A stretch of DNA of 64,000 nucleotides from Candidatus Riesia pediculicola (GTDB taxonomy: Bacteria; Pseudomonadota; Gammaproteobacteria; Enterobacterales; Enterobacteriaceae). The notes beneath the pieces are model-generated. The model was given only the letters and a program-made list of their open reading frames with translations. It ran no database searches and was not told the origin of the DNA. Positions 16,160 to 64,000 of the stretch are shown piece by piece. Position 1 is the first letter of the stretch. Every line of letters begins with the position of its first letter. The stretch covers positions 510,390 to 574,389 of the forward strand of contig NZ_CP012841.1 in NCBI RefSeq assembly GCF_002073915.1. The letters are read 5' to 3'. Position numbers and translations under genes: made by a program.

Positions 16160-16185
16160 AATTTCCTTAAAAAAAGACCTTTTTT

Positions 16186-16208: not shown

Positions 16209-16228
16209 TTATTTCAATTTTTTTCTAT

Positions 16229-17581: not shown

Positions 17582-17584
17582 AAT

Positions 17585-44849: not shown

Positions 44850-46739
44850 TCATTGTTCATCTAAAAAACTTCTTAGTAGTTCTGAACGGCTAGGATGTCT
44901 TAATTTTCTTAGAGCTTTTGCTTCTATTTGTCTAATTCTTTCTCTAGTGACATCAAACTGCTTTCCTACTTCTTCTAAAGTGTGATCTGTATGCATATCA
45001 ATTCCAAATCTCATACGTAATACTTTGGCTTCTCTTGTAGTAAGTCCTGAAAGAACTTCGTTGGTTGCAGATCTTAAACTTTCTGAAGTAGCAGATTCTA
45101 ATGGTAATTCTAATGTTGTATCTTCTATGAAATCTCCCAAATGACTGTCTTCGTCGTCTCCTATTGGGGTTTCCATTGAGATAGGTTCTCTTGCTATTTT
45201 AAGGACTTTTCTAATTTTTTCTTCAGGAATAAGCATTCTTTCTGAAAGCTCTTCTGGAGATGGCTCTCTTCCTGTTTCTTGAAGTATTTGCCGAGATATA
45301 TGATTTAGTTTGTTGATCGTTTCAATCATATGAACTGGAATACGAATTGTTCTAGCTTGATCAGCTATAGATCTAGTGATAGCTTGTCTAATCCACCATG
45401 TCGCATAAGTAGAAAATTTATATCCTCTTCTGTACTCAAATTTATCTACGGCTTTCATTAATCCTATGTTTCCTTCTTGAATAAGATCTAAAAACTGTAA
45501 TCCACGATTAGTATATTTTTTAGCTATTGAAATTACCAATCTTAAATTTGCCTCTACCATTTCTTTTTTAGCTCTTCTTGCTATTGTTTCTCCAATGGAT
45601 ATTTTTCTACCAATTTCTTTAATTTTACTAATGCTTATTCCGGTATCTTTTTCGATTTCGTTTAACTCATTGAGAGCTTGAACAATTGTCGAATCTAATT
45701 TGAATTTTTTTTCATCTTTTTTATTATATCGATTGGATACGATTAATTCTTTTAGATCGTACTCTTTCGGATTTTCAGAAAAAAGATTTAAAAAATACTT
45801 TTTTGGAATTTTATATTCTTTAAACGAAATATTTATGATTAGTTTCTCTTGAATTTTAATCTTTTCTATGGTTTTTCTTATATCTGATATAAGAAAATCG
45901 AGTTGTTTTGGAACTAATCGAAATTGTTTAAATATTTCACATAGATCTTGAATATCCAAAATGGATTGAGAAGATTTTATTCCATTCTCTTTAAGAGAAT
46001 GAGTGACTTTTTCATACTGATTTTGAAGTTCCAAAAATTTTTTTCTGGCAATTTTTGGATCAATATGGTTCCATTCATCTTCTACGTTAGTTCTTGTCGA
46101 ATTTTGACTCTTAGATATATCTTTTTTTTCATAGTTGTTTGATAAAATCTCATCTAAAACGGAATTTATTCGATTTAATTTCATAGAAGAAAAATTTTTA
46201 TCAACATTTTTCGAACTCGAAAAAGTATCTTCTGAAGATAAGCCGGTAATGATATCAGATAACTTCATTTCTCCAGATTCGAATAGAAAATATTGTTTCA
46301 AAATGTAACTAATAGATTTCGGATATTCTGATATGGAACGTTGAATTTGATTAATACCATCTTCTATTCTTTTAGCAATGTCAATTTCGCCTTCTCTAGT
46401 AAGAAGTTCTATCGTACCCATTTCTCTCATATACATCCTGATTGGATCAGTTGTTCTTCCGATTTCTTGTTCTACACTAGACAAAACTTGAGTAGCAGCT
46501 TCGACAGTTTCTTCGTCTGTACTACTCGTAGGATCTGTTAGTATGAGCTCATCTTCATCCGGAACTTCTTCTGTAACACGAATTCCCATGTCGATTATTG
46601 TTTGAATAATATCTTCTATTTGATCTGAATCAACTATATCTTCCGGAAGATTATCGTTCACTTCAGAATAAGTCAGATATCCTTTTTCTTTTCCTTTATT
46701 AACTAGTACTTTTAATTGAGATTTCGGGTTGCGATCCAT
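44850..46739 (-). CDS. rpoD: Principal sigma factor RpoD (left-arm copy)
   Basis: Primary sigma-70 subunit directing RNA polymerase to housekeeping promoters. It has 629 residues (E. coli 613). Region 1.1 opens with [20 protein letters not shown], region 1.2 includes [11 protein letters not shown], region 2 has [20 protein letters not shown] and [10 protein letters not shown], and region 4 carries the -35-binding helix [20 protein letters not shown], ending [13 protein letters not shown] precedes the ATG. It is the third gene of rpsU-dnaG-rpoD, 104 bp after dnaG. All but its last 71 bases (44850-44920) are inside the proven inverted repeat. Confidence 0.99.
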
Positions 46740-46843
46740 AATAAATCCTTATACTTTGTATCTATCGATGATTAAAATTAAAAAATAATTAGAAATATTT
46801 AAATTATAAAATAATTTGAAGTTTTCATTATTGTCTACAAAAT

Positions 46844-48604
46844 TCATTTTCGAGAAGTTATTCGAAGAACTTCTTCTTTTTCTTTGATATTCAATCCTAT
46901 TTTTCTTTCTTTTGAGATCAAAAAATTGAACCTTTCGTTTACAGCTATGGAAGTTAAATGGAACATTGCATCTTGAAAAATTCTTCTTTCGATTTTCTTT
47001 TCTAAAAAAAAGTTATGATTTTCCGAATCTTCTTTGAGTTTTCTAAAAAGAACATCATTATTAAAACGTTTTTCTAATTGATTGGAATCAATTTCAGGAT
47101 AATTTCTACAGATATTGAAAATCTTCAAAAACAGCTTAATTCCAAATAGTTTTATATTTTCATATTTAGAAATATTAAAATTTGGAAAATACCTCACAAA
47201 ATTAGGATTTTTGATTAATAACTTAATCAAAATAGATATTGTTCGAGATTGATTACCTAGTTTCTTTATTTTAGGAGATTTCTTTTGAATAGTACTTTTT
47301 AAAGGTTTTTTTATGCTTCTGTCCTGTATAGAAACCCCTATGATATGGCTAAGCTCATTAAACATACATTTCTTAAAAACGTATCCAGGTATCTTATAAA
47401 TTATTGGAGAAACTAGAGTGCTAAATCTTGCTTTTCCTTCGTTGTTGCTTAAATCTATTTTTTTTTTAAATCTATTAAACAAAAAGTAGGAAAGAAGGTG
47501 AGATTTTTCTATTCTTTTTTCAAATTTTTCTTTTCCTTCTTCACGAATAATTTTATCTGGATCATATCCATTCGGCAAAAACATAAATCTTGCTTGACGA
47601 TCATCCTCCATGTATGAAATGATTATCTTCAATGTTCTCCATGCTGCAGAATATCCCGCCTGATCTCCATCAAAACAGAATACCACGGAGTTTGTAAACT
47701 TAAAAATAGTTTTTACATGATTTTCTGTTAAAGATGTTCCAAGAATTGCTACTGCATAGTTAATCTGAAATTGTTTTAATGATATCACGTCCATATAACC
47801 TTCTACTACCAGAAGCTTTGAAGGATGGTTTTGTTCCTTAATTACTTCATACATTCCATATAGGATTTTTCCTTTTTTAAAAATAACGCTTTCTGGGGAA
47901 TTAATGTACTTTGGTTGAATATGATCATTTAAAATTGTTCTTCCTCCAAAGGCTACTATCATTCCTCTTCGGTTTCTAATTGGAAAAGTTATTCTGTTAT
48001 GAAATTTATTTAAAATTCTTCCTTTTTCATTAATTTTTATGATTCCGATCTCTTTAAGATGATGTGAATAATTTTTCATCTGAATTATTTTTTTTTTTAT
48101 TTTATCATCAAAAATGGATCCAAATCCTATAGAAAAATGTTGTATTGTATTTTGGTCTAAACCTCTTCTTTGCAAGTACCTTTTTGCTGAATAAGAAAAG
48201 CTGTATTTCCAGGAATCTATGAAAGTTTTGTTTATCTCATGCAATATTCCGTAAAAGATGCGTTTAAAATTCTCTCTTTTTGAAAAATTATTTAGTTCTT
48301 CATAGACTATTTCCAGACCGTTCATCTCAGAAAGTTCTTTGATAGCTTCAACGAAACCGACTCCTTTATAATTCATCAAAAAATCGATTGAGTTTCCATG
48401 AGAACTGCAACCAAAGCAATAATAGAATCTTTTTTCTTTATTCACAGTGAAAGAAGGGGTCTTCTCTTTATGAAATGGACACAAAGCCACATAGTTTTTC
48501 CCTTTTTCTTGAAGATTTATATCATTTTGAATTAATTCCACGATATCTGTAATCTCAATTAGCTCTTTAACAAATTCGTTTGATATTTTTTTATTTTTGA
48601 GCAT
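46844..48604 (-). CDS. dnaG: DNA primase (left-arm copy)
   Basis: Synthesises RNA primers for DNA replication. It has 586 residues (E. coli 581). The CHC2 zinc finger is CPFHKEKTPSFTV with CFGC; the TOPRIM domain shows VVEGYMDVISLKQF and the metal-binding CFDGDQAGYSAAW; FMFLPNGYDPD is a further core motif. The C-terminal helicase-interaction domain (after about residue 430) keeps its length but is strongly diverged. It starts 33 bases after rpsU, with no strong ribosome-binding site. Confidence 0.97.
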   Translation of the reverse strand: MLKNKKISNEFVKELIEITDIVELIQNDINLQEKGKNYVALCPFHKEKTPSFTVNKEKRFYYCFGCSSHGNSIDFLMNYKGVGFVEAIKELSEMNGLEIVYEELNNFSKRENFKRIFYGILHEINKTFIDSWKYSFSYSAKRYLQRRGLDQNTIQHFSIGFGSIFDDKIKKKIIQMKNYSHHLKEIGIIKINEKGRILNKFHNRITFPIRNRRGMIVAFGGRTILNDHIQPKYINSPESVIFKKGKILYGMYEVIKEQNHPSKLLVVEGYMDVISLKQFQINYAVAILGTSLTENHVKTIFKFTNSVVFCFDGDQAGYSAAWRTLKIIISYMEDDRQARFMFLPNGYDPDKIIREEGKEKFEKRIEKSHLLSYFLFNRFKKKIDLSNNEGKARFSTLVSPIIYKIPGYVFKKCMFNELSHIIGVSIQDRSIKKPLKSTIQKKSPKIKKLGNQSRTISILIKLLIKNPNFVRYFPNFNISKYENIKLFGIKLFLKIFNICRNYPEIDSNQLEKRFNNDVLFRKLKEDSENHNFFLEKKIERRIFQDAMFHLTSIAVNERFNFLISKERKIGLNIKEKEEVLRITSRK

Positions 48605-48637
48605 ATCATCGTGCTTTCATATTCTTAAAAAATTTTT

Positions 48638-48883
48638 TCATCTTTTCTTCTTTAACAGATTCGGATTTAGAAATGTCCGAAATCTTCTTGAATTTTCTCT
48701 AGCTATTTTTTTTGCATGTCTTTTAATGGAAGAAGCCTTTTCTCTTTTTCTAACTGTTGTCGGTTTTTCATAAAATTCTCTTCTCCTGACTTCTGCAAGA
48801 ACCCCAGCTTTTTCGCAAGAACGTTTGAATCTTCGAAAAGCTAAGTCAAACGGCTCATTTTCTTTAACTTTTATTATAGGCAT
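48638..48883 (-). CDS. rpsU: 30S ribosomal protein S21 with C-terminal extension (left-arm copy)
   Basis: Small basic protein of the 30S platform that helps initiation. It has 81 residues against 71 in E. coli. The first 60 residues are almost identical ([35 protein letters not shown]), then the usual end ARRTRLY is replaced by SRRFRTF plus ten extra residues, [10 protein letters not shown]. First gene of the macromolecular-synthesis operon rpsU-dnaG-rpoD and divergent from tsaD across about 200 bp, as in E. coli. Confidence 0.97.
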
Positions 48884-49082
48884 AAGGTCAATTATCTCTT
48901 GAATTTAAATACTGTGTAGAATATTATAAAAGATTATCTGTTTAAAATTACAAAATATTTATTCTACTCGAATATAAAAAAATATGCAAAAAACAGGATT
49001 TTTTTGAAGAAATTTTCTTGATTTTTTAGTGTTTTTAAAAATACTTGATCTAAAATTTTTCAAATAGTAAAAGAGATATTAT

Positions 49083-50114
49083 ATGATGGTTCTTGGAATA
49101 GAAACTTCTTGTGATGACACTGGAGTAGCTATTTATGATGATGAATTGGGACTTTTGTTCAATAAAGTTGAAAGTCAACACGAGTTACATAGTCGATATG
49201 GTGGGGTATTACCAGAATTAGCTTCCAGAGCGCATTCAATTAAATTACCTAAACTAATCAAATTAGCAATTTCCCAGAAAAACCTTCTGACGAATAATAA
49301 AGTTGATGCAATTGCTTATACTGCTGGTCCTGGGTTGGTAGGTTCTTTACTAGTTGGTTCAATTTTTGGAAAGTCCTTAGCTTTTTCTTTGAAGATTCCT
49401 GTAATTCCCGTTCATCACATAGAAGGTCATATTTTTTCTGTTATGCTATGTCAAAAAGAAATTCCAGATTTTCCATTTTTGGTTCTTTTGATTTCAGGGG
49501 GAAATACTCAGATTATATCTGTTCAATCTGTCGGAAAATATCGATTGTTAGGAAGGTCTAGAGATGATTCAGTAGGAGAAGTTTTTGATAAAGTTGCCAG
49601 ACATTTAGGATTAAAGTATCCAGGTGGATATTTGATATCCTCAATTGCTAATAAAGGTAATCCAGGAAAGTTTCGATTTCCAAGACCTATGATTCATTCA
49701 GATGATCTAGATCTTAGTTTTTCTGGCTTAAAAACTAGTGTTTTAAATGTTATTCAAGAAAGAAAATTAGATTTTCAAACAATATGTGATATAGCGTATG
49801 AATTTGAGAAATCTGTAGTAGATACATTGATAGAAAAATGCAGAGCTGCTTTGAATCGTGAGAAAGTTGATAATCTAGTTGTAGTAGGAGGAGTAGGTTC
49901 GAATTTTTCTATTAGATCCAAAATAAAATCATTTTTTGGAAATGTTGGAAAAAAAGTTTTTTTTCCTAAATATGAATTTTGTACTGATAATGGAGCAATG
50001 ATAGCGTATGCTGGAACATTACGATTAAAATATCAAATAAGTAGTTCTCCTACGTTTTTAAAAAAAGTTATCGATCCGAAATTATCCATATCGAAATATT
50101 CAGAAGAGATATGA
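49083..50114 (+). CDS. tsaD: tRNA threonylcarbamoyladenosine (t6A) transferase TsaD (left-arm copy)
   Basis: Transfers threonylcarbamoyl to A37 of tRNAs reading ANN codons, a nearly universal modification. It has 343 residues (E. coli 337). VLGIETSCDDTGVAIYD opens the ASKHA fold, the metal-binding histidines are in VHHIEGHIFS, and ISGGNTQII, DSVGEVFDKVARHLGL and VVVGGVGSNFSIR are conserved. E. coli TsaB, TsaC and TsaE partners are not in this window. Both tRNAs here (Ile2 with CAU, Asn with GUU) decode ANN codons and are expected substrates. Confidence 0.97.
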   Translation: MMVLGIETSCDDTGVAIYDDELGLLFNKVESQHELHSRYGGVLPELASRAHSIKLPKLIKLAISQKNLLTNNKVDAIAYTAGPGLVGSLLVGSIFGKSLAFSLKIPVIPVHHIEGHIFSVMLCQKEIPDFPFLVLLISGGNTQIISVQSVGKYRLLGRSRDDSVGEVFDKVARHLGLKYPGGYLISSIANKGNPGKFRFPRPMIHSDDLDLSFSGLKTSVLNVIQERKLDFQTICDIAYEFEKSVVDTLIEKCRAALNREKVDNLVVVGGVGSNFSIRSKIKSFFGNVGKKVFFPKYEFCTDNGAMIAYAGTLRLKYQISSSPTFLKKVIDPKLSISKYSEEI

Positions 50115-50168
50115 AAGAGTTGAAAAAAATAAATATCTTAAAATTTTTTTGATAAAAAAGGATTCATT

Positions 50169-50522
50169 ATGAAAGTTTTAATCATTGATCAACTATCAAT
50201 TTTTACCAGAATTGGAGTTTACGATTGGGAAAAACAAATAAAACAGAAATTATTAATTAGTATAAAAATTTCTCGAAAAAAATATGATATTGAGAATGAA
50301 AAATTCGAAAACTATCTAGATTATTCTAAGATAAGCGAAACTATCGTGAATTATCTTGAAAGAAATTCTTTTTCTTTGATAGAAGAAGTTGCTGACAAAA
50401 TATCTAGAATTCTGTTCAATCAGTTCTTTTGCAATTGGGTAAAAGTTACGGTATTTAAACCTAACGCTATAGCGAGAGCGAAAACGGTCGGTGTATGTTT
50501 AGAAAGAAAAATAGATATATAA
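50169..50522 (+). CDS. folB: Dihydroneopterin aldolase (left-arm copy)
   Basis: Converts dihydroneopterin to the hydroxymethyl-dihydropterin used in folate synthesis, and may also epimerise it. It has 117 residues (E. coli about 118-122). The start IDQLSIFTRIGVYDWEK holds the conserved Glu, SLIEEVADKISR and the C-terminal FKPNAIARAKTVGVCLER hold the active-site Lys and flanking motif. An AAGGA site precedes the ATG. Its stop is one base from the convergent cca stop. PlsY, between tsaD and folB in E. coli, is lost. Confidence 0.94.
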   Translation: MKVLIIDQLSIFTRIGVYDWEKQIKQKLLISIKISRKKYDIENEKFENYLDYSKISETIVNYLERNSFSLIEEVADKISRILFNQFFCNWVKVTVFKPNAIARAKTVGVCLERKIDI

Positions 50523-50523
50523 T

Positions 50524-51777
50524 TTATCTTAAATGATTTTTTCTTATTTTTTTTAAGTTCATCACTTTTTCTATTATTTTTAATCTGTTCTTTAGGATTG
50601 TCCCGCGTATTTCTTTATTTTTCATTTTTTGAAAGTCAATTTTTAAAGAGCTTTTCGATACTTTCTTAAATATTTTCATTAATAATTCTCCTTGTGGGTA
50701 ATAACATCCTAGTTCCAGCCTATTTTTAACAATGTAATGAGCTTTACATACCGTGATGAGTTGATCTATATTTTTCGGTTTTCTCCAAACATCCATTTGA
50801 TCAAATATTTTGATAACCTCTTTGCTGCAAGAATTTTGGATATTTTGAACATTTTGATGAACTTTAGCAATGGCAACGGATAATTTTTTAGTTTTAGTTG
50901 GAACACACATTCTATCGCAAAAACTACGAACCATTTGAACAGCTGAGTTAATCTTTTTTTCTTTGGAATTACTCATATGATTATCGTAAAAAAAAACAGT
51001 AAAATTACTACATAAAGCTGCGAATCTTACTTCAATACTTTTTGTTAACAAAGCTGATTTTTTAATAACAAGAAAGATATATTCTTTTTGATCAATAAAA
51101 GAAGTAAGTGAAGACTTTTTTTTGAAAGATTTTGTTAAAATAATTTGAATTTCTGGAAAAAGTACAGATAGAGCTCCACATTGAAAAAGCATTTTAAAAT
51201 ATAAATCTGGAGATGAAGTAGATAAAGCTTTTTTAGTTTCTATCCAAACTCTCTCTTTGCTGACTGTTTTGAGGTCTTCTTGTTGAACCATCTCTTCGAT
51301 TATTTTCCAGGTTTTATGATAAATGGTGAAATAATATTCAGATAGTTTTGCGTAAAATCTGGCTGTCCTTAGCACTCTAATCGGATCTTCCGAAAAAGCA
51401 TTAGAAACATGTCTTATGATTCTCTTTTGAATGTCTTTGATTCCAAAAAAAGGGTCTATGATTTTGTTTTTTGTTGTTTTAGCAATTGCATTGATGGTTA
51501 GATCTCTTCTATATAAATCTTCTTCAATAGTTACAGAAGGAGAACTGAAACATTGAAAACCAGTGTGACCGGATCCTATTTTTCGATCAATTCTTGCTAA
51601 TGAATACTCCTCTTTAGTAACTGGATGTAAAAATACAGGAAAGTCTCTGCCGACCTGTTGAAATCCCAGTCGAATCATTTCTTGAGGGCTGCTTCCAACG
51701 ACCAACCAATCTCTATCTGAAATGGGCATCCCTAATATTTGATCTCTGACAGCTCCTCCTACTAAATAAATTTTCAT
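50524..51777 (-). CDS. cca: tRNA CCA-adding enzyme with a degraded HD domain (left-arm copy)
   Basis: Adds or repairs the CCA end of tRNAs. It has 417 residues (E. coli 412). The class II nucleotidyltransferase core is intact: LVGGAVRD, catalytic carboxylates in DRDWLVVG (Asp21, Asp23), RRDLTINAIA and EDPIRVLRTARF. In the C-terminal half, the HD phosphohydrolase signature LCHDLGKG of E. coli reads LCSNFTVF (residues 255-262), and HPE and HGHGP metal-site motifs are also missing. So the 2',3'-cyclic phosphodiesterase and phosphatase activities should be lost while CCA addition remains. It must be essential, since neither tRNA gene here encodes CCA. Confidence 0.95.
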   Translation of the reverse strand: MKIYLVGGAVRDQILGMPISDRDWLVVGSSPQEMIRLGFQQVGRDFPVFLHPVTKEEYSLARIDRKIGSGHTGFQCFSSPSVTIEEDLYRRDLTINAIAKTTKNKIIDPFFGIKDIQKRIIRHVSNAFSEDPIRVLRTARFYAKLSEYYFTIYHKTWKIIEEMVQQEDLKTVSKERVWIETKKALSTSSPDLYFKMLFQCGALSVLFPEIQIILTKSFKKKSSLTSFIDQKEYIFLVIKKSALLTKSIEVRFAALCSNFTVFFYDNHMSNSKEKKINSAVQMVRSFCDRMCVPTKTKKLSVAIAKVHQNVQNIQNSCSKEVIKIFDQMDVWRKPKNIDQLITVCKAHYIVKNRLELGCYYPQGELLMKIFKKVSKSSLKIDFQKMKNKEIRGTILKNRLKIIEKVMNLKKIRKNHLR

Positions 51778-52272
51778 ATCGTCGTTATATGTTAAAATCG
51801 TATCTTCTGATTTGATCAGTATAATTTTTTCGTTAATCTATGACCAGATTTTTTAAAAAAAGCGTTTACAAATTCTTATATCGTATATTGTTCGAAATAG
51901 ATATTTAATTTCTTAGTTTTTTTATCTTATTGATACGAGATGAATTGGATTAATTAATGAGAATTTTATAAATTCATCATTTAACGCCTAGTAACAAGAA
52001 ACGATTTATGTGAAGTATAAAAATCTCAAAACTCTTTAGAGATCTCGAAATTTACCAATAAAGATAATAATAGCTATTGATGTTTTTTAAAAAATTGATA
52101 ATCTTTTTTAAATAGGTTTGTCTTTCAATTAAAAGAACGTTTTTCTGAAAAGTTCGATACTTCATGAAAAAATTATGTATTCCAATATTTTAGAACAACC
52201 TTTCATGTATATTTCTCACTGGATGTTGAGGATTAGTATTTTAATTTATGTGATATATCTTACGGAGAATAA
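51778..52272. other. Spacer between divergent cca and hldE (left arm)
   Basis: A 495-bp AT-rich interval where E. coli has glnE, ygiF and ygiM. It ends in a GGAGA ribosome-binding site for hldE. No gene remnant or tRNA is seen. It is copied base for base in the right arm where I compared it, although non-coding DNA should drift quickly, so the duplication must be young or kept uniform by gene conversion. Confidence 0.45.
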
Positions 52273-53685
52273 ATGAAATTTTCTATTCCCAATTTTGAAA
52301 AAAACAGAATTTTAGTGATCGGAGATATTATTTTAGATAATTATTGGTATGGAATAACTGAAAAAATTTCAAAAGAAGCTCCAATTCCTACAGTTAATAT
52401 AAAGAGTAGATTGTCTAAATTAGGAGGAGCTGCCAACGTTGCAGTCAATGCATCCAGATTAGGAGCAAGAGTTTTTTTGATCGGTTTGGTTGGAAACGAT
52501 GAATCATCTGAAATTGTTAGAAGTGAATTAGTCAGGTTAAAAATTCTCTTCGATCTTATCGTTCTTCCAAATTATTTAACAGTAACCAAATTTAGAATTT
52601 TTTCCAAAAATCAACAAATCGCTCGAATGGATTTTGAAGAAAAAATAAAAGAAAAATGTTCTGAATATGTTTCGTATATCTTAGAAAAGGTAAAAAAAAG
52701 AATTTCTTTCGCGCAAGTCATTGTATTATCTGATTATGGAAAAGGAGCTTTATATGAAACTTCTAAAATAATTGATCTCGCTAGGAATTATAAAATACCA
52801 GTTTTAGTTGATCCTTATGGAAAAAATTTTGAGAAATATAAAGAATCTACCATGCTTACACCTAATTTGGATGAGTTTGAATTGGTTGTTGGAAAATGTT
52901 CAAACAATTCTGAAATGGAGAAAAAGGGTTTTGAGATGATTCGTAGTTTATCTTTGGAAAGCATATTGATCACACTTTCTGAAAAAGGAATTTTGTTATT
53001 GTCTAACAAAGAACATAAATTATATTTACCGTCTTTTGTAAGAAATGTAAAGAATGTTACTGGAGCTGGAGATACCATGATTGCTACTTTGGCGGTAGCT
53101 TTCTCTTCTTCTGAACTAAGTTTAGATCAATCTTGTTTTTTATCCAATATTGCTGCTTCTATCGTTGTAGAAAAAGAAAATACTTCTGATGTTTCAATAG
53201 AAGAATTGAAAAGAAGATTCTATGAAAGAAGCTGTAGATTTTTTGGTATTCTTCGGGAAGATCAAATAAAAAATACTGTAAATATTTGTAAGTTCTTAAA
53301 AGAAAAAATTGTAATGGTGGTCGGATACTTGGACGAGATTCATCTTACTTATGTTCGATATCTTAACAGAGCTCGTAACTTTGGGGATCGACTGATCGTT
53401 GCGATCAACATTGATACATCTATCGAGAGATTAAAATTGAAGAATACTTTCTATTCCACGGAAAATACAATGGAAATTTTATTACAGTTGAAATCAGTAG
53501 ATTGGATTATTCCATTTAAAGAAAAAAGTCCAGAAAATATTGTTAGGAAAATTAAACCAGATGTTTTTATATCGACAAAAATATGTTCGTCTTGGATCGA
53601 AAATATATTTCGTTATGTAGGAGAAGTGAAAATTCTCAATTTTAAAGACAATCGGTTTTATGATGAGAATGTAAAAATAGTATGA
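52273..53685 (+). CDS. hldE: Heptose kinase/adenylyltransferase HldE with a ruined adenylyltransferase half (left-arm copy)
   Basis: In E. coli both phosphorylates heptose-7-phosphate and adenylylates heptose-1-phosphate for lipopolysaccharide core. It has 470 residues (E. coli 477). The N-terminal PfkB-type kinase domain looks sound: LVIGDIILDNYWYG, LGGAANVAVN and the catalytic NVTGAGDTM at residues 261-269. In the C-terminal domain, E. coli GVFDILHAGH is GYLDEIHLTY (residues 351-360): the HxGH nucleotidyltransferase signature has lost Gly and the second His. The KGGDY motif is replaced by STKIC, and the terminal STT motif is gone. The fold seems kept (NFGDRLIVAIN) but adenylylation is unlikely. 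Confidence 0.93.
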   Translation: MKFSIPNFEKNRILVIGDIILDNYWYGITEKISKEAPIPTVNIKSRLSKLGGAANVAVNASRLGARVFLIGLVGNDESSEIVRSELVRLKILFDLIVLPNYLTVTKFRIFSKNQQIARMDFEEKIKEKCSEYVSYILEKVKKRISFAQVIVLSDYGKGALYETSKIIDLARNYKIPVLVDPYGKNFEKYKESTMLTPNLDEFELVVGKCSNNSEMEKKGFEMIRSLSLESILITLSEKGILLLSNKEHKLYLPSFVRNVKNVTGAGDTMIATLAVAFSSSELSLDQSCFLSNIAASIVVEKENTSDVSIEELKRRFYERSCRFFGILREDQIKNTVNICKFLKEKIVMVVGYLDEIHLTYVRYLNRARNFGDRLIVAINIDTSIERLKLKNTFYSTENTMEILLQLKSVDWIIPFKEKSPENIVRKIKPDVFISTKICSSWIENIFRYVGEVKILNFKDNRFYDENVKIV

Positions 53686-53854
53686 AAAAAGATGGTTTTT
53701 GATTTTTGTAATATAAAAACTTTTAAAAAAAATTGTCCTTTTTATTCTCATATTTATATAATAAGGAATATCTGTTTTCTTTATGAATTTTGTTTGTTTT
53801 TTTTGTTGCGATTCCACGAAAGATGAAGTAATCAAAATTTAGGAGTAATTATAA

Positions 53855-54340
53855 ATGGCTAGTAGAGGTATAAATAAGGTAATATTAATTGGTTATTTAG
53901 GTCAGGATCCAGAGATTCGATATATGCCTAACGGAAACGCTGTAGCGAATTTGTCTCTAGCTACTTCTGAAAATTGGAAAGATAAGCAAACCGGAGAAAT
54001 GAGAGAAAGAACAGAATGGCATAGAGTTGTCATATTTGGCAAACTAGCAGAGGTATCTGGAGAACATTTAAGAAAAGGATCTCAGGTTTATATCGAAGGT
54101 TCTTTGCAAACTAGAAAATGGCAGGATCAAAACGGGCAAGATCGATACAATACCGAAGTTATTGTGAATATCGGCGGTACGATGAGAATGTTGGGTACTA
54201 AAAATCATCAAGATCTTTCTCAAAGAGATAAACCATCGATTTGGGAGAAACAAAAGACTTCTGAAAAGATCGTCGATTCAAGTTCAAATGAAGAAGGCAA
54301 GGAAGAATCGATAGAATTTGATGACGATATTCCCTTTTAG
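53855..54340 (+). CDS. ssb: Single-stranded DNA-binding protein (left-arm copy)
   Basis: Tetrameric protein that coats single-stranded DNA in replication and repair. It has 161 residues (E. coli 178). The OB-fold opens [20 protein letters not shown] and includes [14 protein letters not shown] and [14 protein letters not shown]; the linker is shortened; the acidic tip EFDDDIPF that recruits partner proteins is kept. AGGAG precedes the ATG. It is the innermost gene of the inverted repeat, ending 45 bp from the arm edge. In E. coli ssb is next to uvrA, so its place here reflects rearrangement. Confidence 0.98.
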
Positions 54341-54397
54341 TTCATTTGATCAAATTAATTTCGAGTTTCTTACGGAATTTTTTAAAAAAATATTTGA

Positions 54398-54427
54398 TTG
54401 ACTATAATATTTTAACCATTATATAAT
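54398..54427 (+). promoter_or_regulatory. Sigma-70 promoter of tRNA-Asn
   Basis: TTGACT (54398-54403) and TATAAT (54422-54427) are 18 bases apart, a near-consensus promoter. The -10 box ends 16 bases before the tRNA 5' end. It lies wholly inside the unique 150-bp core of the inverted repeat. Confidence 0.75.
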
Positions 54428-54443
54428 TAGGAATTTAAAATAA

Positions 54444-54515
54444 TCCTCCATAGTTCAGATGGTAGAACGGCGGACTGTTAATCCGTATGCACTGGTTCGA
54501 ATCCAGTTGGAGGAG
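54444..54515 (+). tRNA. asnT: tRNA-Asn with GUU anticodon
   Basis: A 72-base cloverleaf: acceptor TCCTCCA pairs with TGGAGGA, discriminator G, D arm TAGTTCAGATGGTAGAA, anticodon loop CTGTTAA (GUU), T arm ACTGGTTCGAATCCAGT. The variable loop has four bases, one fewer than in E. coli. CCA is not encoded. A T-rich tail (54516-54527) follows and may end transcription. It is the only gene in the core between the arms and therefore the only single-copy gene of this region. The symbol is by analogy; E. coli has several identical asn genes. Confidence 0.96.
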
Positions 54516-54580
54516 TTTTATTTTTTTAGATAGAATTAAAAAATTCCGTAAGAAACTCGAAATTAATTTGATCAAATGAA

Positions 54581-56648: not shown

Positions 56649-57143
56649 TTATTCTCCGTAAGATATATCACATAAATTAAAATACTAATCCTCAACATCC
56701 AGTGAGAAATATACATGAAAGGTTGTTCTAAAATATTGGAATACATAATTTTTTCATGAAGTATCGAACTTTTCAGAAAAACGTTCTTTTAATTGAAAGA
56801 CAAACCTATTTAAAAAAGATTATCAATTTTTTAAAAAACATCAATAGCTATTATTATCTTTATTGGTAAATTTCGAGATCTCTAAAGAGTTTTGAGATTT
56901 TTATACTTCACATAAATCGTTTCTTGTTACTAGGCGTTAAATGATGAATTTATAAAATTCTCATTAATTAATCCAATTCATCTCGTATCAATAAGATAAA
57001 AAAACTAAGAAATTAAATATCTATTTCGAACAATATACGATATAAGAATTTGTAAACGCTTTTTTTAAAAAATCTGGTCATAGATTAACGAAAAAATTAT
57101 ACTGATCAAATCAGAAGATACGATTTTAACATATAACGACGAT
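56649..57143. other. Spacer between hldE and cca (right arm)
   Basis: A 495-bp mirror copy of 51778-52272. Compared segments, including the AT-rich stretch near 57061-57080, match exactly. Nothing else is recognisable. Confidence 0.45.
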
Positions 57144-58397
57144 ATGAAAATTTATTTAGTAGGAGGAGCTGTCAGAGATCAAATATTAGGGATGCCCATT
57201 TCAGATAGAGATTGGTTGGTCGTTGGAAGCAGCCCTCAAGAAATGATTCGACTGGGATTTCAACAGGTCGGCAGAGACTTTCCTGTATTTTTACATCCAG
57301 TTACTAAAGAGGAGTATTCATTAGCAAGAATTGATCGAAAAATAGGATCCGGTCACACTGGTTTTCAATGTTTCAGTTCTCCTTCTGTAACTATTGAAGA
57401 AGATTTATATAGAAGAGATCTAACCATCAATGCAATTGCTAAAACAACAAAAAACAAAATCATAGACCCTTTTTTTGGAATCAAAGACATTCAAAAGAGA
57501 ATCATAAGACATGTTTCTAATGCTTTTTCGGAAGATCCGATTAGAGTGCTAAGGACAGCCAGATTTTACGCAAAACTATCTGAATATTATTTCACCATTT
57601 ATCATAAAACCTGGAAAATAATCGAAGAGATGGTTCAACAAGAAGACCTCAAAACAGTCAGCAAAGAGAGAGTTTGGATAGAAACTAAAAAAGCTTTATC
57701 TACTTCATCTCCAGATTTATATTTTAAAATGCTTTTTCAATGTGGAGCTCTATCTGTACTTTTTCCAGAAATTCAAATTATTTTAACAAAATCTTTCAAA
57801 AAAAAGTCTTCACTTACTTCTTTTATTGATCAAAAAGAATATATCTTTCTTGTTATTAAAAAATCAGCTTTGTTAACAAAAAGTATTGAAGTAAGATTCG
57901 CAGCTTTATGTAGTAATTTTACTGTTTTTTTTTACGATAATCATATGAGTAATTCCAAAGAAAAAAAGATTAACTCAGCTGTTCAAATGGTTCGTAGTTT
58001 TTGCGATAGAATGTGTGTTCCAACTAAAACTAAAAAATTATCCGTTGCCATTGCTAAAGTTCATCAAAATGTTCAAAATATCCAAAATTCTTGCAGCAAA
58101 GAGGTTATCAAAATATTTGATCAAATGGATGTTTGGAGAAAACCGAAAAATATAGATCAACTCATCACGGTATGTAAAGCTCATTACATTGTTAAAAATA
58201 GGCTGGAACTAGGATGTTATTACCCACAAGGAGAATTATTAATGAAAATATTTAAGAAAGTATCGAAAAGCTCTTTAAAAATTGACTTTCAAAAAATGAA
58301 AAATAAAGAAATACGCGGGACAATCCTAAAGAACAGATTAAAAATAATAGAAAAAGTGATGAACTTAAAAAAAATAAGAAAAAATCATTTAAGATAA
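57144..58397 (+). CDS. cca: tRNA CCA-adding enzyme (right-arm copy)
   Basis: Protein identical to the copy at 50524-51777, including Asp21 and Asp23 of the nucleotidyltransferase site and the LCSNFTVF sequence in place of the HD signature. It converges on the right-arm folB copy with one base between the stop codons. Confidence 0.95.
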   Translation: MKIYLVGGAVRDQILGMPISDRDWLVVGSSPQEMIRLGFQQVGRDFPVFLHPVTKEEYSLARIDRKIGSGHTGFQCFSSPSVTIEEDLYRRDLTINAIAKTTKNKIIDPFFGIKDIQKRIIRHVSNAFSEDPIRVLRTARFYAKLSEYYFTIYHKTWKIIEEMVQQEDLKTVSKERVWIETKKALSTSSPDLYFKMLFQCGALSVLFPEIQIILTKSFKKKSSLTSFIDQKEYIFLVIKKSALLTKSIEVRFAALCSNFTVFFYDNHMSNSKEKKINSAVQMVRSFCDRMCVPTKTKKLSVAIAKVHQNVQNIQNSCSKEVIKIFDQMDVWRKPKNIDQLITVCKAHYIVKNRLELGCYYPQGELLMKIFKKVSKSSLKIDFQKMKNKEIRGTILKNRLKIIEKVMNLKKIRKNHLR

Positions 58398-58398
58398 A

Positions 58399-58752
58399 TT
58401 ATATATCTATTTTTCTTTCTAAACATACACCGACCGTTTTCGCTCTCGCTATAGCGTTAGGTTTAAATACCGTAACTTTTACCCAATTGCAAAAGAACTG
58501 ATTGAACAGAATTCTAGATATTTTGTCAGCAACTTCTTCTATCAAAGAAAAAGAATTTCTTTCAAGATAATTCACGATAGTTTCGCTTATCTTAGAATAA
58601 TCTAGATAGTTTTCGAATTTTTCATTCTCAATATCATATTTTTTTCGAGAAATTTTTATACTAATTAATAATTTCTGTTTTATTTGTTTTTCCCAATCGT
58701 AAACTCCAATTCTGGTAAAAATTGATAGTTGATCAATGATTAAAACTTTCAT
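58399..58752 (-). CDS. folB: Dihydroneopterin aldolase (right-arm copy)
   Basis: Protein identical to 50169-50522 with the same AAGGA ribosome-binding site. It lies 54 bp downstream of the tsaD copy, on the same strand, as in the left arm. Confidence 0.94.
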   Translation of the reverse strand: MKVLIIDQLSIFTRIGVYDWEKQIKQKLLISIKISRKKYDIENEKFENYLDYSKISETIVNYLERNSFSLIEEVADKISRILFNQFFCNWVKVTVFKPNAIARAKTVGVCLERKIDI

Positions 58753-58806
58753 AATGAATCCTTTTTTATCAAAAAAATTTTAAGATATTTATTTTTTTCA
58801 ACTCTT

Positions 58807-59838
58807 TCATATCTCTTCTGAATATTTCGATATGGATAATTTCGGATCGATAACTTTTTTTAAAAACGTAGGAGAACTACTTATTTGATATTTTAATCGT
58901 AATGTTCCAGCATACGCTATCATTGCTCCATTATCAGTACAAAATTCATATTTAGGAAAAAAAACTTTTTTTCCAACATTTCCAAAAAATGATTTTATTT
59001 TGGATCTAATAGAAAAATTCGAACCTACTCCTCCTACTACAACTAGATTATCAACTTTCTCACGATTCAAAGCAGCTCTGCATTTTTCTATCAATGTATC
59101 TACTACAGATTTCTCAAATTCATACGCTATATCACATATTGTTTGAAAATCTAATTTTCTTTCTTGAATAACATTTAAAACACTAGTTTTTAAGCCAGAA
59201 AAACTAAGATCTAGATCATCTGAATGAATCATAGGTCTTGGAAATCGAAACTTTCCTGGATTACCTTTATTAGCAATTGAGGATATCAAATATCCACCTG
59301 GATACTTTAATCCTAAATGTCTGGCAACTTTATCAAAAACTTCTCCTACTGAATCATCTCTAGACCTTCCTAACAATCGATATTTTCCAACAGATTGAAC
59401 AGATATAATCTGAGTATTTCCCCCTGAAATCAAAAGAACCAAAAATGGAAAATCTGGAATTTCTTTTTGACATAGCATAACAGAAAAAATATGACCTTCT
59501 ATGTGATGAACGGGAATTACAGGAATCTTCAAAGAAAAAGCTAAGGACTTTCCAAAAATTGAACCAACTAGTAAAGAACCTACCAACCCAGGACCAGCAG
59601 TATAAGCAATTGCATCAACTTTATTATTCGTCAGAAGGTTTTTCTGGGAAATTGCTAATTTGATTAGTTTAGGTAATTTAATTGAATGCGCTCTGGAAGC
59701 TAATTCTGGTAATACCCCACCATATCGACTATGTAACTCGTGTTGACTTTCAACTTTATTGAACAAAAGTCCCAATTCATCATCATAAATAGCTACTCCA
59801 GTGTCATCACAAGAAGTTTCTATTCCAAGAACCATCAT
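58807..59838 (-). CDS. tsaD: t6A transferase TsaD (right-arm copy)
   Basis: Protein identical to 49083-50114, with the HHIEGHI metal site. It is divergent from the rpsU copy, so the regulatory spacer between them is duplicated as well. Confidence 0.97.
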   Translation of the reverse strand: MMVLGIETSCDDTGVAIYDDELGLLFNKVESQHELHSRYGGVLPELASRAHSIKLPKLIKLAISQKNLLTNNKVDAIAYTAGPGLVGSLLVGSIFGKSLAFSLKIPVIPVHHIEGHIFSVMLCQKEIPDFPFLVLLISGGNTQIISVQSVGKYRLLGRSRDDSVGEVFDKVARHLGLKYPGGYLISSIANKGNPGKFRFPRPMIHSDDLDLSFSGLKTSVLNVIQERKLDFQTICDIAYEFEKSVVDTLIEKCRAALNREKVDNLVVVGGVGSNFSIRSKIKSFFGNVGKKVFFPKYEFCTDNGAMIAYAGTLRLKYQISSSPTFLKKVIDPKLSISKYSEEI

Positions 59839-60037
59839 ATAATATCTCTTTTACTATTTGAAAAATTTTAGATCAAGTATTTTTAAAAACACTAAAAAAT
59901 CAAGAAAATTTCTTCAAAAAAATCCTGTTTTTTGCATATTTTTTTATATTCGAGTAGAATAAATATTTTGTAATTTTAAACAGATAATCTTTTATAATAT
60001 TCTACACAGTATTTAAATTCAAGAGATAATTGACCTT

Positions 60038-60283
60038 ATGCCTATAATAAAAGTTAAAGAAAATGAGCCGTTTGACTTAGCTTTTCGAAGATTCAAACGT
60101 TCTTGCGAAAAAGCTGGGGTTCTTGCAGAAGTCAGGAGAAGAGAATTTTATGAAAAACCGACAACAGTTAGAAAAAGAGAAAAGGCTTCTTCCATTAAAA
60201 GACATGCAAAAAAAATAGCTAGAGAAAATTCAAGAAGATTTCGGACATTTCTAAATCCGAATCTGTTAAAGAAGAAAAGATGA
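60038..60283 (+). CDS. rpsU: 30S ribosomal protein S21 with C-terminal extension (right-arm copy)
   Basis: Protein identical to 48638-48883, including the ten-residue extension [10 protein letters not shown]. It heads a second rpsU-dnaG-rpoD unit running rightward. Confidence 0.97.
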
Positions 60284-60316
60284 AAAAATTTTTTAAGAAT
60301 ATGAAAGCACGATGAT

Positions 60317-62077
60317 ATGCTCAAAAATAAAAAAATATCAAACGAATTTGTTAAAGAGCTAATTGAGATTACAGATATCGTGGAATTAATTCAAAATGAT
60401 ATAAATCTTCAAGAAAAAGGGAAAAACTATGTGGCTTTGTGTCCATTTCATAAAGAGAAGACCCCTTCTTTCACTGTGAATAAAGAAAAAAGATTCTATT
60501 ATTGCTTTGGTTGCAGTTCTCATGGAAACTCAATCGATTTTTTGATGAATTATAAAGGAGTCGGTTTCGTTGAAGCTATCAAAGAACTTTCTGAGATGAA
60601 CGGTCTGGAAATAGTCTATGAAGAACTAAATAATTTTTCAAAAAGAGAGAATTTTAAACGCATCTTTTACGGAATATTGCATGAGATAAACAAAACTTTC
60701 ATAGATTCCTGGAAATACAGCTTTTCTTATTCAGCAAAAAGGTACTTGCAAAGAAGAGGTTTAGACCAAAATACAATACAACATTTTTCTATAGGATTTG
60801 GATCCATTTTTGATGATAAAATAAAAAAAAAAATAATTCAGATGAAAAATTATTCACATCATCTTAAAGAGATCGGAATCATAAAAATTAATGAAAAAGG
60901 AAGAATTTTAAATAAATTTCATAACAGAATAACTTTTCCAATTAGAAACCGAAGAGGAATGATAGTAGCCTTTGGAGGAAGAACAATTTTAAATGATCAT
61001 ATTCAACCAAAGTACATTAATTCCCCAGAAAGCGTTATTTTTAAAAAAGGAAAAATCCTATATGGAATGTATGAAGTAATTAAGGAACAAAACCATCCTT
61101 CAAAGCTTCTGGTAGTAGAAGGTTATATGGACGTGATATCATTAAAACAATTTCAGATTAACTATGCAGTAGCAATTCTTGGAACATCTTTAACAGAAAA
61201 TCATGTAAAAACTATTTTTAAGTTTACAAACTCCGTGGTATTCTGTTTTGATGGAGATCAGGCGGGATATTCTGCAGCATGGAGAACATTGAAGATAATC
61301 ATTTCATACATGGAGGATGATCGTCAAGCAAGATTTATGTTTTTGCCGAATGGATATGATCCAGATAAAATTATTCGTGAAGAAGGAAAAGAAAAATTTG
61401 AAAAAAGAATAGAAAAATCTCACCTTCTTTCCTACTTTTTGTTTAATAGATTTAAAAAAAAAATAGATTTAAGCAACAACGAAGGAAAAGCAAGATTTAG
61501 CACTCTAGTTTCTCCAATAATTTATAAGATACCTGGATACGTTTTTAAGAAATGTATGTTTAATGAGCTTAGCCATATCATAGGGGTTTCTATACAGGAC
61601 AGAAGCATAAAAAAACCTTTAAAAAGTACTATTCAAAAGAAATCTCCTAAAATAAAGAAACTAGGTAATCAATCTCGAACAATATCTATTTTGATTAAGT
61701 TATTAATCAAAAATCCTAATTTTGTGAGGTATTTTCCAAATTTTAATATTTCTAAATATGAAAATATAAAACTATTTGGAATTAAGCTGTTTTTGAAGAT
61801 TTTCAATATCTGTAGAAATTATCCTGAAATTGATTCCAATCAATTAGAAAAACGTTTTAATAATGATGTTCTTTTTAGAAAACTCAAAGAAGATTCGGAA
61901 AATCATAACTTTTTTTTAGAAAAGAAAATCGAAAGAAGAATTTTTCAAGATGCAATGTTCCATTTAACTTCCATAGCTGTAAACGAAAGGTTCAATTTTT
62001 TGATCTCAAAAGAAAGAAAAATAGGATTGAATATCAAAGAAAAAGAAGAAGTTCTTCGAATAACTTCTCGAAAATGA
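60317..62077 (+). CDS. dnaG: DNA primase (right-arm copy)
   Basis: Protein identical to 46844-48604, with the zinc-finger and TOPRIM motifs intact. It begins 33 bases after rpsU and ends 104 bases before the rpoD copy, the same spacing as in the left arm. Confidence 0.97.
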   Translation: MLKNKKISNEFVKELIEITDIVELIQNDINLQEKGKNYVALCPFHKEKTPSFTVNKEKRFYYCFGCSSHGNSIDFLMNYKGVGFVEAIKELSEMNGLEIVYEELNNFSKRENFKRIFYGILHEINKTFIDSWKYSFSYSAKRYLQRRGLDQNTIQHFSIGFGSIFDDKIKKKIIQMKNYSHHLKEIGIIKINEKGRILNKFHNRITFPIRNRRGMIVAFGGRTILNDHIQPKYINSPESVIFKKGKILYGMYEVIKEQNHPSKLLVVEGYMDVISLKQFQINYAVAILGTSLTENHVKTIFKFTNSVVFCFDGDQAGYSAAWRTLKIIISYMEDDRQARFMFLPNGYDPDKIIREEGKEKFEKRIEKSHLLSYFLFNRFKKKIDLSNNEGKARFSTLVSPIIYKIPGYVFKKCMFNELSHIIGVSIQDRSIKKPLKSTIQKKSPKIKKLGNQSRTISILIKLLIKNPNFVRYFPNFNISKYENIKLFGIKLFLKIFNICRNYPEIDSNQLEKRFNNDVLFRKLKEDSENHNFFLEKKIERRIFQDAMFHLTSIAVNERFNFLISKERKIGLNIKEKEEVLRITSRK

Positions 62078-62181
62078 ATTTTGTAGACAATAATGAAAAC
62101 TTCAAATTATTTTATAATTTAAATATTTCTAATTATTTTTTAATTTTAATCATCGATAGATACAAAGTATAAGGATTTATT

Positions 62182-64000
62182 ATGGATCGCAACCCGAAAT
62201 CTCAATTAAAAGTACTAGTTAATAAAGGAAAAGAAAAAGGATATCTGACTTATTCTGAAGTGAACGATAATCTTCCGGAAGATATAGTTGATTCAGATCA
62301 AATAGAAGATATTATTCAAACAATAATCGACATGGGAATTCGTGTTACAGAAGAAGTTCCGGATGAAGATGAGCTCATACTAACAGATCCTACGAGTAGT
62401 ACAGACGAAGAAACTGTCGAAGCTGCTACTCAAGTTTTGTCTAGTGTAGAACAAGAAATCGGAAGAACAACTGATCCAATCAGGATGTATATGAGAGAAA
62501 TGGGTACGATAGAACTTCTTACTAGAGAAGGCGAAATTGACATTGCTAAAAGAATAGAAGATGGTATTAATCAAATTCAACGTTCCATATCAGAATATCC
62601 GAAATCTATTAGTTACATTTTGAAACAATATTTTCTATTCGAATCTGGAGAAATGAAGTTATCTGATATCATTACCGGCTTATCTTCAGAAGATACTTTT
62701 TCGAGTTCGAAAAATGTTGATAAAAATTTTTCTTCTATGAAATTAAATCGAATAAATTCCGTTTTAGATGAGATTTTATCAAACAACTATGAAAAAAAAG
62801 ATATATCTAAGAGTCAAAATTCGACAAGAACTAACGTAGAAGATGAATGGAACCATATTGATCCAAAAATTGCCAGAAAAAAATTTTTGGAACTTCAAAA
62901 TCAGTATGAAAAAGTCACTCATTCTCTTAAAGAGAATGGAATAAAATCTTCTCAATCCATTTTGGATATTCAAGATCTATGTGAAATATTTAAACAATTT
63001 CGATTAGTTCCAAAACAACTCGATTTTCTTATATCAGATATAAGAAAAACCATAGAAAAGATTAAAATTCAAGAGAAACTAATCATAAATATTTCGTTTA
63101 AAGAATATAAAATTCCAAAAAAGTATTTTTTAAATCTTTTTTCTGAAAATCCGAAAGAGTACGATCTAAAAGAATTAATCGTATCCAATCGATATAATAA
63201 AAAAGATGAAAAAAAATTCAAATTAGATTCGACAATTGTTCAAGCTCTCAATGAGTTAAACGAAATCGAAAAAGATACCGGAATAAGCATTAGTAAAATT
63301 AAAGAAATTGGTAGAAAAATATCCATTGGAGAAACAATAGCAAGAAGAGCTAAAAAAGAAATGGTAGAGGCAAATTTAAGATTGGTAATTTCAATAGCTA
63401 AAAAATATACTAATCGTGGATTACAGTTTTTAGATCTTATTCAAGAAGGAAACATAGGATTAATGAAAGCCGTAGATAAATTTGAGTACAGAAGAGGATA
63501 TAAATTTTCTACTTATGCGACATGGTGGATTAGACAAGCTATCACTAGATCTATAGCTGATCAAGCTAGAACAATTCGTATTCCAGTTCATATGATTGAA
63601 ACGATCAACAAACTAAATCATATATCTCGGCAAATACTTCAAGAAACAGGAAGAGAGCCATCTCCAGAAGAGCTTTCAGAAAGAATGCTTATTCCTGAAG
63701 AAAAAATTAGAAAAGTCCTTAAAATAGCAAGAGAACCTATCTCAATGGAAACCCCAATAGGAGACGACGAAGACAGTCATTTGGGAGATTTCATAGAAGA
63801 TACAACATTAGAATTACCATTAGAATCTGCTACTTCAGAAAGTTTAAGATCTGCAACCAACGAAGTTCTTTCAGGACTTACTACAAGAGAAGCCAAAGTA
63901 TTACGTATGAGATTTGGAATTGATATGCATACAGATCACACTTTAGAAGAAGTAGGAAAGCAGTTTGATGTCACTAGAGAAAGAATTAGACAAATAGAAG
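62182..64000 (+). CDS. rpoD: Principal sigma factor RpoD (right-arm copy), 3' end beyond the window
   Basis: Starts with ATG after AAGGA and reads [16 protein letters not shown] like the left copy. The frame is open to the last base of the window: 606 codons are visible, into the region 4 helix around [11 protein letters not shown]. By symmetry the stop should be at 64071. Whether the last 23 codons match the left copy cannot be checked here. Confidence 0.96.

What the first reader, a model, noticed from the sequence alone, without database searches (positions are those of the whole stretch)
44921..64000. Perfect giant inverted repeat (arms of at least 9.46 kb) around a single tRNA-Asn gene
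Seen directly: all features left of the core recur inverted on the right at 108,921 minus their coordinate, with no net indel, identical proteins and identical spacers where compared. The unique core is only 150 bp. Long near-palindromes are unstable in bacteria and very rare in reduced genomes, which usually shed duplicates. It doubles rpoD, dnaG, rpsU, tsaD, ssb and cca. Possible explanations: a recent fold-back or template-switch event at replication, a chromosome end or end-fusion structure (I recall that the louse symbiont Riesia was reported with a linear chromosome), an organelle-like repeat kept identical by gene conversion, or an assembly artefact.
Basis: partly seen in the sequence, partly recalled or inferred. 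Interest (0 to 1): 0.88.

Follow-up and report, generated by a model that had tools for sequence, protein, structure and literature searches.

The report
Fold-back palindromes cap both chromosome ends
A louse-dwelling bacterium with a tiny genome appears to end its chromosome, at both tips, with long mirror-image copies of its own end genes, and a sister species shows signs of the same design, which may be a way for a bacterium to live without true telomeres.

Summary
The inverted repeat is real in the record: arms 44921-54385 and 54536-64000, 9,465 bp with two silent mismatches, around a 150-bp core holding a tRNA-Asn gene with no second match in the genome. The window's last base is the last base of a 574,389-bp chromosome record, whose size fits Candidatus Riesia pediculicola. 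The opposite end has a second, unrelated palindrome: arms of about 8.0 kb around a core with rsmD and ftsY. In the one other genome of the genus among those searched, the chromosome contig stops at the same two cores, so the fold-back probably predates the split. Arms are at least 99.9% identical; the species differ at half of four-fold sites. No telomere resolvase, Xer, DnaA domain or full RecB was found; RecA is present. Best reading: both ends of an opened chromosome were capped by fold-back duplication, the outer copy being a re-copied buffer. A circular head-to-head dimer is the main rival; read depth would decide. The end duplication is in print (PMC4232544); this structure was not found in print.

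The parts
44921..54385 (+). Right-end palindrome, inner arm (continuous with the rest of the chromosome)
54386..54535 (+). Single-copy core, 150 bp, the pivot of the fold-back
   Evidence: equivalent stretch opens the G001 contig
54398..54427 (+). Promoter-like site TTGACT-18-TATAAT before tRNA-Asn, inside the core; consensus match only (3 sites found in the region, 2.2 expected)
54444..54515 (+). tRNA-Asn (GTT), single match in the genome
54536..64000 (-). Right-end palindrome, outer arm; reaches the last base of the chromosome record
44850..46739 (-). rpoD, complete inner copy (44850-44920 lies just outside the arm)
62182..64000 (+). rpoD, outer copy, cut at the record end (606 of 629 codons)
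   Evidence: mirror coordinates
46844..48604 (-). dnaG inner copy (outer mirror 60317-62077 +)
48638..48883 (-). rpsU inner copy (outer mirror 60038-60283 +)
49083..50114 (+). tsaD inner copy (outer mirror 58807-59838 -); silent mismatch at 49532/59389
50169..50522 (+). folB inner copy (outer mirror 58399-58752 -)
   Evidence: folB domain over cut-off; full-length models below theirs
50524..51777 (-). cca inner copy (outer mirror 57144-58397 +)
   Evidence: best model PRK13298, below its curated cut-off
52273..53685 (+). hldE inner copy (outer mirror 55236-56648 -); silent mismatch at 53116/55805
   Evidence: best model PRK11316, below its curated cut-off
53855..54340 (+). ssb inner copy (outer mirror 54581-55066 -)

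Best explanation
The repeat is one of two fold-back palindromes at the two ends of a linear Riesia chromosome. Inferred history: the ancestral chromosome was opened, and each free 3' end folded back on a nearby short inverted match, primed synthesis and copied the end region outward as an inverted duplicate. This left a single-copy pivot at each end: tRNA-Asn on the right, rsmD-ftsY on the left. Inferred maintenance: with no resolvase found and no protein cap known, the outer arm erodes or varies in length and is re-copied from the inner arm, by RecA-dependent recombination or by renewed fold-back synthesis. That would keep the arms identical and make the outer copies of rpoD, dnaG, rpoH and others a disposable buffer for essential genes. 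Shown: both palindromes, their cores, silent-only substitutions, matching contig ends in a second species, and the repair-gene set. Not shown: physical linearity, true length of the outer arms, and the copying step.
For: Window end = record end. Second palindrome at the other end, arms 37-8037 and 9606-17609 of L003, core 1,568 bp, unrelated to the right one. Left core is the divergent rsmD-ftsY pair, neighbours in 5 of 5 relatives in which one search found ftsY proper (G006, G008-G011, out of 6 relatives outside the genus given). In G000 rsmD and ftsY share their last 23 bases because both enter the arm, a fold-back signature. G001's contig starts with the tRNA-Asn core then ssb and ends about 300 bp past the rpoH start in an rsmD-like tail, LYCLFKHHG* against LYSLFKRH* (score reached at 1 of 79,896 positions, itself); G001 has no rsmD or ftsY proper. 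Arms differ by 3 substitutions, all silent, against 51% at four-fold sites between species. RecA present in both Riesia, no RecB over cut-off in either; no resolvase, Xer or DnaA domain in either. PMC6990135 (passages) states the chromosome is linear.
Against: No read data were available. G001's ends contain no inverted repeat; short-read collapse is assumed. The G001 junction rests on about nine codons found by looking at that end first, only two residues (LY against IN) favour rsmD over ftsY, and the ftsY tail scores 22, reached at 9 of 79,896 positions. For the chimpanzee-louse Riesia, which may or may not be G001, PMC4232544 reports no duplicated regions, a depth range of 120-150x (a doubled stretch could exceed that, unless contig averages are meant), and a check of unassembled contigs for genes missing against the human-louse species; the last would argue that a missing ftsY is a true loss. 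Core plus outer arm is 9,605 bp on the left (36 N included) and 9,615 bp on the right, which hints at a technical limit. Homopolymer deletions in the left outer arm suggest thin coverage. In yeast with palindromic ends, homologous recombination hindered rather than helped palindromes (PMC4981268), against RecA-driven upkeep. RecA with no RecB also holds for G006, not known here to have such ends. SbcD and RuvB are missing, but also in 5 of 6 relatives outside the genus. Arms and flanks diverge alike (559/1099 and 329/640 four-fold sites).
Confidence: 0.5

Rival explanations
1. Whole-chromosome head-to-head dimer: a circle made of two mirror-image chromosomes joined at the two single-copy cores, like an isochromosome. 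The record would show only the first ~9.6 kb of the mirrored half because assembly could not go further from the core.
For: Fold-back capping followed by replication round the hairpin is proposed to give duplication up to the far chromosome end in yeast (PMC10622511, passages). Nearly equal extension past both inner arms, 9,605 and 9,615 bp. G001's record is one contig from core to core. Even depth of 120-150x reported for the chimpanzee-louse species fits equal dosage of arms and middle. No Xer-type gene found.
Against: Review text calls the chromosome linear (the primary paper was not held). A reduced genome would be expected to delete one half. No depth data for this genome.
Confidence: 0.23
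2. Assembly artefact: chimeric or mis-joined clones doubled the ends of a normal chromosome.
For: Both repeats sit exactly at record ends; 36 N at the left end; homopolymer indels in the left outer arm; G001's ends show no repeat, and PMC4232544 reports none in the chimpanzee-louse species, with even depth and a check for missed contigs.
Against: Two independent ends; G001 contig ends coincide with both cores and carry an rsmD-like tail beside rpoH; the 3 substitutions between arms are all silent; rsmD and ftsY are not found in G001, as expected for an unplaced core.
Confidence: 0.14
3. Circular chromosome in which the two outer arms are joined to each other across the record gap, i.e. two adjacent palindromes near one locus, as a relic of chromosome rescue like that proposed for Lactobacillus bulgaricus.
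For: Large inverted repeats with unique cores exist in circular L. bulgaricus chromosomes, and repeats of 8.7 and 9.4 kb were found in two further circular genomes (PMC5345009); the record starts with 36 N.
Against: The two record ends share no overlap, while the plasmid record does overlap by 104 bp; a branch at the outer arm borders would be expected to break the G001 contig, which is one record with short N runs.
Confidence: 0.08

Closest known systems
PAL yeast: palindromic chromosome ends in telomerase- and Rad52-deficient budding yeast (PMC4981268, passages read)
   Same: Chromosome ends carry inverted duplications formed at short inverted repeats; duplicated end genes are proposed to protect essential genes from erosion; cells live without telomeres.
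   Different: Laboratory mutants of a eukaryote in which homologous recombination hinders palindromes; here a bacterium with RecA, two species probably sharing the same pivots.
Lactobacillus delbrueckii ssp. bulgaricus terminus inverted repeats (PMC5345009, parts 1-3 of 6 read)
   Same: Large inverted repeat around a 1 to 8.8 kb unique core; fold-back origin proposed; two incomplete assemblies end there with doubled depth.
   Different: One repeat inside a circular chromosome, being eroded; here two different repeats, each at a record end, arms nearly identical.
Candidatus Phytoplasma mali linear chromosome (PMC2459194, passages read)
   Same: Small linear chromosome of a host-bound bacterium with very long, identical inverted repeats at the ends.
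   Different: There both ends share one terminal inverted repeat and are hairpins; here the two ends are unrelated and each is mirrored on itself.
Babesia microti / B. rodhaini linear mitochondrial DNA with two pairs of inverted repeats (PMC3546061, passages read)
   Same: Two distinct pairs of inverted repeats on one linear molecule.
   Different: The repeats there are 184-1082 bp and flank regions of about 3 kb that invert; here arms are 8-9.5 kb and the outer arm is the end of the record.
Duplicated region at the end of the R. pediculicola chromosome (PMC4232544, section 12 and passages read)
   Same: Very probably the same right-end duplication, noted in 2014 as a likely gain of identical genes.
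   Different: Described as a duplicated region with mobile elements as a possible cause; the parts read do not call it inverted, do not give a second one at the other end, and do not treat it as an end structure.

Membership tests
Hairpin-telomere linear replicons (Borrelia, Agrobacterium, N15) | Telomere resolvase gene | tested here: not met
   PF16684: 0 of 2 Riesia genomes, E up to 1; control rang in 2 of 14, over the cut-off in 1. A very divergent enzyme is not excluded.
Hairpin-telomere linear replicons (Borrelia, Agrobacterium, N15) | Covalently closed hairpin tip | not testable with these tools
   Needs snap-back or exonuclease assay.
Streptomyces-type or P. mali-type terminal inverted repeats | The same sequence inverted at both ends | tested here: not met
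   Left 20 kb against window: only matches of 25-52 bp.
Streptomyces-type linear chromosome | Terminal protein and telomere-associated protein | not tested
   No search made.
Fold-back inverted duplication | Long near-identical inverted arms around a single-copy pivot | tested here: met
   Both ends.
Fold-back inverted duplication | Short inverted match at the pivot before duplication | tested here: inconclusive
   Left: FtsY and several RsmD of relatives end in loosely similar tails, compatible with microhomology; right: no undoubled relative to read the ancestral flank.
Palindromic chromosome ends (PAL-like) | Outer arm is a physical chromosome end | tested here: inconclusive
   Record ends inside both outer arms and the ends do not overlap; no read data.
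L. bulgaricus-type terminus repeat | Lies inside a circular chromosome at the replication terminus | tested here: inconclusive
   Record ends lie at the repeats; GC skew of sampled stretches showed no clear origin or terminus.

The most novel reading that the evidence does not exclude
A third kind of bacterial chromosome end: no hairpin resolvase and no protein cap, only a self-templated palindrome at each tip, different at the two ends, inherited through speciation and kept identical by copying the outer arm from the inner one. In its strongest form the chromosome alternates between a linear monomer with fold-back ends and a head-to-head dimer, with tRNA-Asn and rsmD-ftsY as the only single-copy genes.
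Probability: 0.35. Interest if true: 0.92.

Novelty: new variant of a known kind. Interest (0 to 1): 0.74.

Why it matters
For linear bacterial chromosomes two kinds of ends were distinguished (PMC2459194, passages): hairpins made by a resolvase, and protein-capped inverted repeats. A natural bacterium living with fold-back palindromes would add a third, simpler one, and would show how a chromosome can be linear where no full RecB, Xer or DnaA is found. It could also explain why rsmD and ftsY (essential in E. coli, recalled) are not found in a related genome, and it warns that short-read symbiont assemblies can hide palindromic ends.

Tried and rejected
Telomere resolvase: searched, none. Shared terminal repeats between the two ends: none. 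Repeat-linked slow-down of evolution, to separate a true duplicate from a whole-chromosome dimer: no contrast. My first count (arms 635/1246, flanks 378/746) included antisense frames and cross-matches between the sigma-factor genes; the recount with these dropped gives arms 559/1099 in 15 ORFs and flanks 329/640 in 10 ORFs, 25 of 26 ORFs kept having a match. N runs in G001 as marks of collapsed repeats: 4 runs in the first 20 kb against 2 in the other 120 kb sampled, too few to use. GC skew for the origin: no clean pattern in sampled stretches. Ancestral neighbours of tRNA-Asn: no tRNA within 1.5 kb of ssb or rsmD in 21 of 21 loci of relatives scanned, out of 36 fetched, so a single break between tRNA-Asn and rsmD stays a guess. 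Named relatives in genome contigs: the first scan found none, the second only 2 Omnitrophota contigs, so G001 has no name here; its size and small plasmid (566,667 and 5,197 bp) resemble R. pediculischaeffi of PMC4232544 (576,757 and 5,159 bp) without matching. Rfam on the left 20 kb: nothing at gathering scores. Plasmid: its duplication is a direct tandem, not inverted, so not part of this. The primary Riesia genome paper and the 2017 follow-up were not held.

Novelty searches. Judged by titles and abstract starts of the rows shown, none describes inverted repeats at both ends of this chromosome; some searches showed only 20 of 61, 25 of 252, 15 of 486 and 15 of 616 papers, and the library lacks most subscription papers, including the primary one.

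Changes after checking: the depth range, the missed-contig check in PMC4232544 and the recombination result in PMC4981268 had been left out; for these I lowered the best reading from 0.55 to 0.5 and raised the dimer from 0.2 to 0.23 and the artefact from 0.12 to 0.14.
Full report
Observation. The arms 44921-54385 and 54536-64000 are inverted copies over 9,465 bp with two mismatches, around 150 bp of unique DNA. The core holds tRNA-Asn, which has one match in the genome. Genes in the arm are rpoD, dnaG, rpsU, tsaD, folB, cca, hldE and ssb (cca, hldE and the full-length folB models fall below the curated cut-offs, so those names also lean on gene order). In 157,211 bases of the same genome taken outside the palindromes the longest inverted BLAST match was 67 bp at 78%.

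Where it is. The window is G000:C2:510390-574389 and contig C2 is 574,389 bp, so the right arm reaches the last base of the chromosome record, inside the outer rpoD copy after 606 of 629 codons. With a 7,737-bp second contig the genome has 582,126 bases, against 582,127 and a plasmid of 7,737 given for Ca. Riesia pediculicola in PMC4232544 (section 12). I take the organism to be that species; this is inference from size. PMC6990135 (passages) states that this chromosome is linear, citing a primary paper that was not held.

The other end. The first 20 kb of the chromosome begin with 36 N and then form a second palindrome: 37-8037 against 9606-17609, 99.9% identical, with a core of 1,568 bp. It shares with the right one only matches of 25-52 bp. 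Its arm holds rpoH, accC, accB, aroQ, mreB, mreC and kdsC and its core rsmD and ftsY. One search looked for ftsY in 6 relatives outside the genus; it found ftsY proper in 5 (G006, G008-G011), and in 5 of 5 rsmD is the divergent neighbour. In G000 both genes end with the same 23 bases because both run into the arm. In relatives FtsY and several RsmD end in loosely similar short tails, which could have served as the microhomology for a fold-back. That last step is inference.

Differences between arms. Right: two C/T substitutions, both silent. Left: one C/T substitution, silent, plus four single-base deletions in homopolymer runs in the outer copy, which shorten the outer mreB frame and alter the start of kdsC, and a ragged base at the inner border. 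Three of three substitutions silent fits real, selected copies; the homopolymer deletions look like sequencing errors in a thinly covered stretch.

A second species. Of the 20 genomes searched, own genome included, one other is of the same genus (G001). Its chromosome contig is 566,667 bp. It opens with the tRNA-Asn core, then ssb, hldE and cca in the order of G000's right end, and closes about 300 bp beyond the rpoH start. The last 30 bases, read toward rpoH, encode LYCLFKHHG*, best matched by the RsmD tail of G000, LYSLFKRH* (score 33, reached by 1 of 79,896 positions in 40 kb of G001, itself; the FtsY tail INSLFKRH scores 22, reached by 9). The comparison was made after seeing that end. rsmD proper and ftsY proper are not found in G001; the weak hits there lie where G000 has its paralogues. 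So a contig of another species stops at both pivots and leaves out the left core, as expected if identical arms on both sides of each core broke a short-read assembly. The stretch between this tail and rpoH is too diverged to align well.

Results against it. [quoted passage not shown] Its reads were 100 bp with 350-bp inserts, which could not resolve such repeats, but a doubled stretch should raise local depth unless averages are meant, and the contig check speaks for true gene loss. Whether G001 is that species is not settled. These points favour the dimer or artefact over the linear reading somewhat, and the odds were moved for them.

Concerted evolution. Aligned pieces of the two species are 70-84% identical at the DNA level, 87% over the tRNA core, and differ at about half of four-fold sites both in arms (559/1099) and next to them (329/640). 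The arms within G000 differ by 3 substitutions in 17.5 kb. If the palindromes predate the split, the copies have been kept alike or renewed.

Machinery. In both Riesia: RecA present (control 14 of 14); no RecB over cut-off, only partial helicase-type matches (control 12 of 14, over cut-off in 1); no DnaA domain (control 13 of 14); no tyrosine recombinase (control 14 of 14); no telomere resolvase domain (control 2 of 14); no SbcD (control 13 of 14); no RuvB over cut-off (control 14 of 14, over cut-off in 10). Of the reduced relatives G006, G007, G008 and G011, RecB is kept by three (G007, G008, G011) and RecA by one (G006). RecA without RecB sets Riesia and G006 apart from those three; G009 and G010 were not tested for RecA. 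Loss of RecB would remove the enzyme that degrades open ends; RecA would allow copying between arms. This is suggestive only: G006 shares the pattern without known palindromes, and in yeast with palindromic ends recombination hindered palindromes (PMC4981268).

Interpretation. The simplest account is that an opened chromosome was capped at both ends by fold-back synthesis before the two species split, and that the outer arms serve as replaceable copies. This matches the published logic of palindromic ends in yeast without telomeres, where duplicated end genes are kept away from the eroding tip (PMC4981268), and of fold-back repeats in L. bulgaricus (PMC5345009). It differs from hairpin or protein-capped linear chromosomes and from P. 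mali, where both ends share one repeat (PMC2459194).

What is open. The record cannot show where the outer arms stop. Core plus outer arm measures 9,605 bp at the left, 36 N included, and 9,615 bp at the right, so near to each other that a technical limit is a fair suspicion. Fold-back capping followed by replication round the hairpin is held to yield inverted duplication reaching to the far end of the chromosome (PMC10622511, passages), so a whole-chromosome head-to-head dimer is a serious rival. Read depth separates the cases.

Novelty. [quoted passage not shown] Eight genes in the right arm and at least seven in the left would exceed eleven, so the left one appears not to have been counted; this is inference. 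Inverted repeats of similar arm length, 8.7 and 9.4 kb, were reported in two circular genomes and longer ones in L. bulgaricus, 5 of 1,368 circular genomes scanned there (PMC5345009). The searches named under Tried and rejected gave no paper describing inverted repeats at both ends of this chromosome. The new points are the second palindrome, the single-copy pivots, the matching contig ends in a second species, and the repair-gene context.

Noticed in passing
L003:1-36: The chromosome record starts with 36 N; whether native to the record or masked is unknown.
   Followed up: no
L005:2375-5104: The plasmid holds about 2.3 direct tandem copies of a 1,178-bp unit, 99.9% alike.
   Followed up: partly
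L005:5-108 and 7633-7736: The plasmid record's ends overlap by 104 bp, so the circle is about 104 bp shorter than recorded.
   Followed up: no
window 44850-46739; L003:9930-10790: Sigma-factor genes lie in both arms: rpoD at the right end and rpoH at the left end, each present twice.
   Followed up: no
G000 and G001 genomes: No DnaA domain and no Xer-type recombinase found, while RecA is kept; replication may start without DnaA.
   Followed up: partly
G006: Another reduced relative with RecA but without RecB over cut-off; its contig ends were not examined for palindromes.
   Followed up: no
L047:962-2340 and 7911-9682: hldE and rpoD of G001 are frameshifted near the contig end, rpoD beside a run of seven N; may reflect assembly trouble at a collapsed repeat.
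   Followed up: partly
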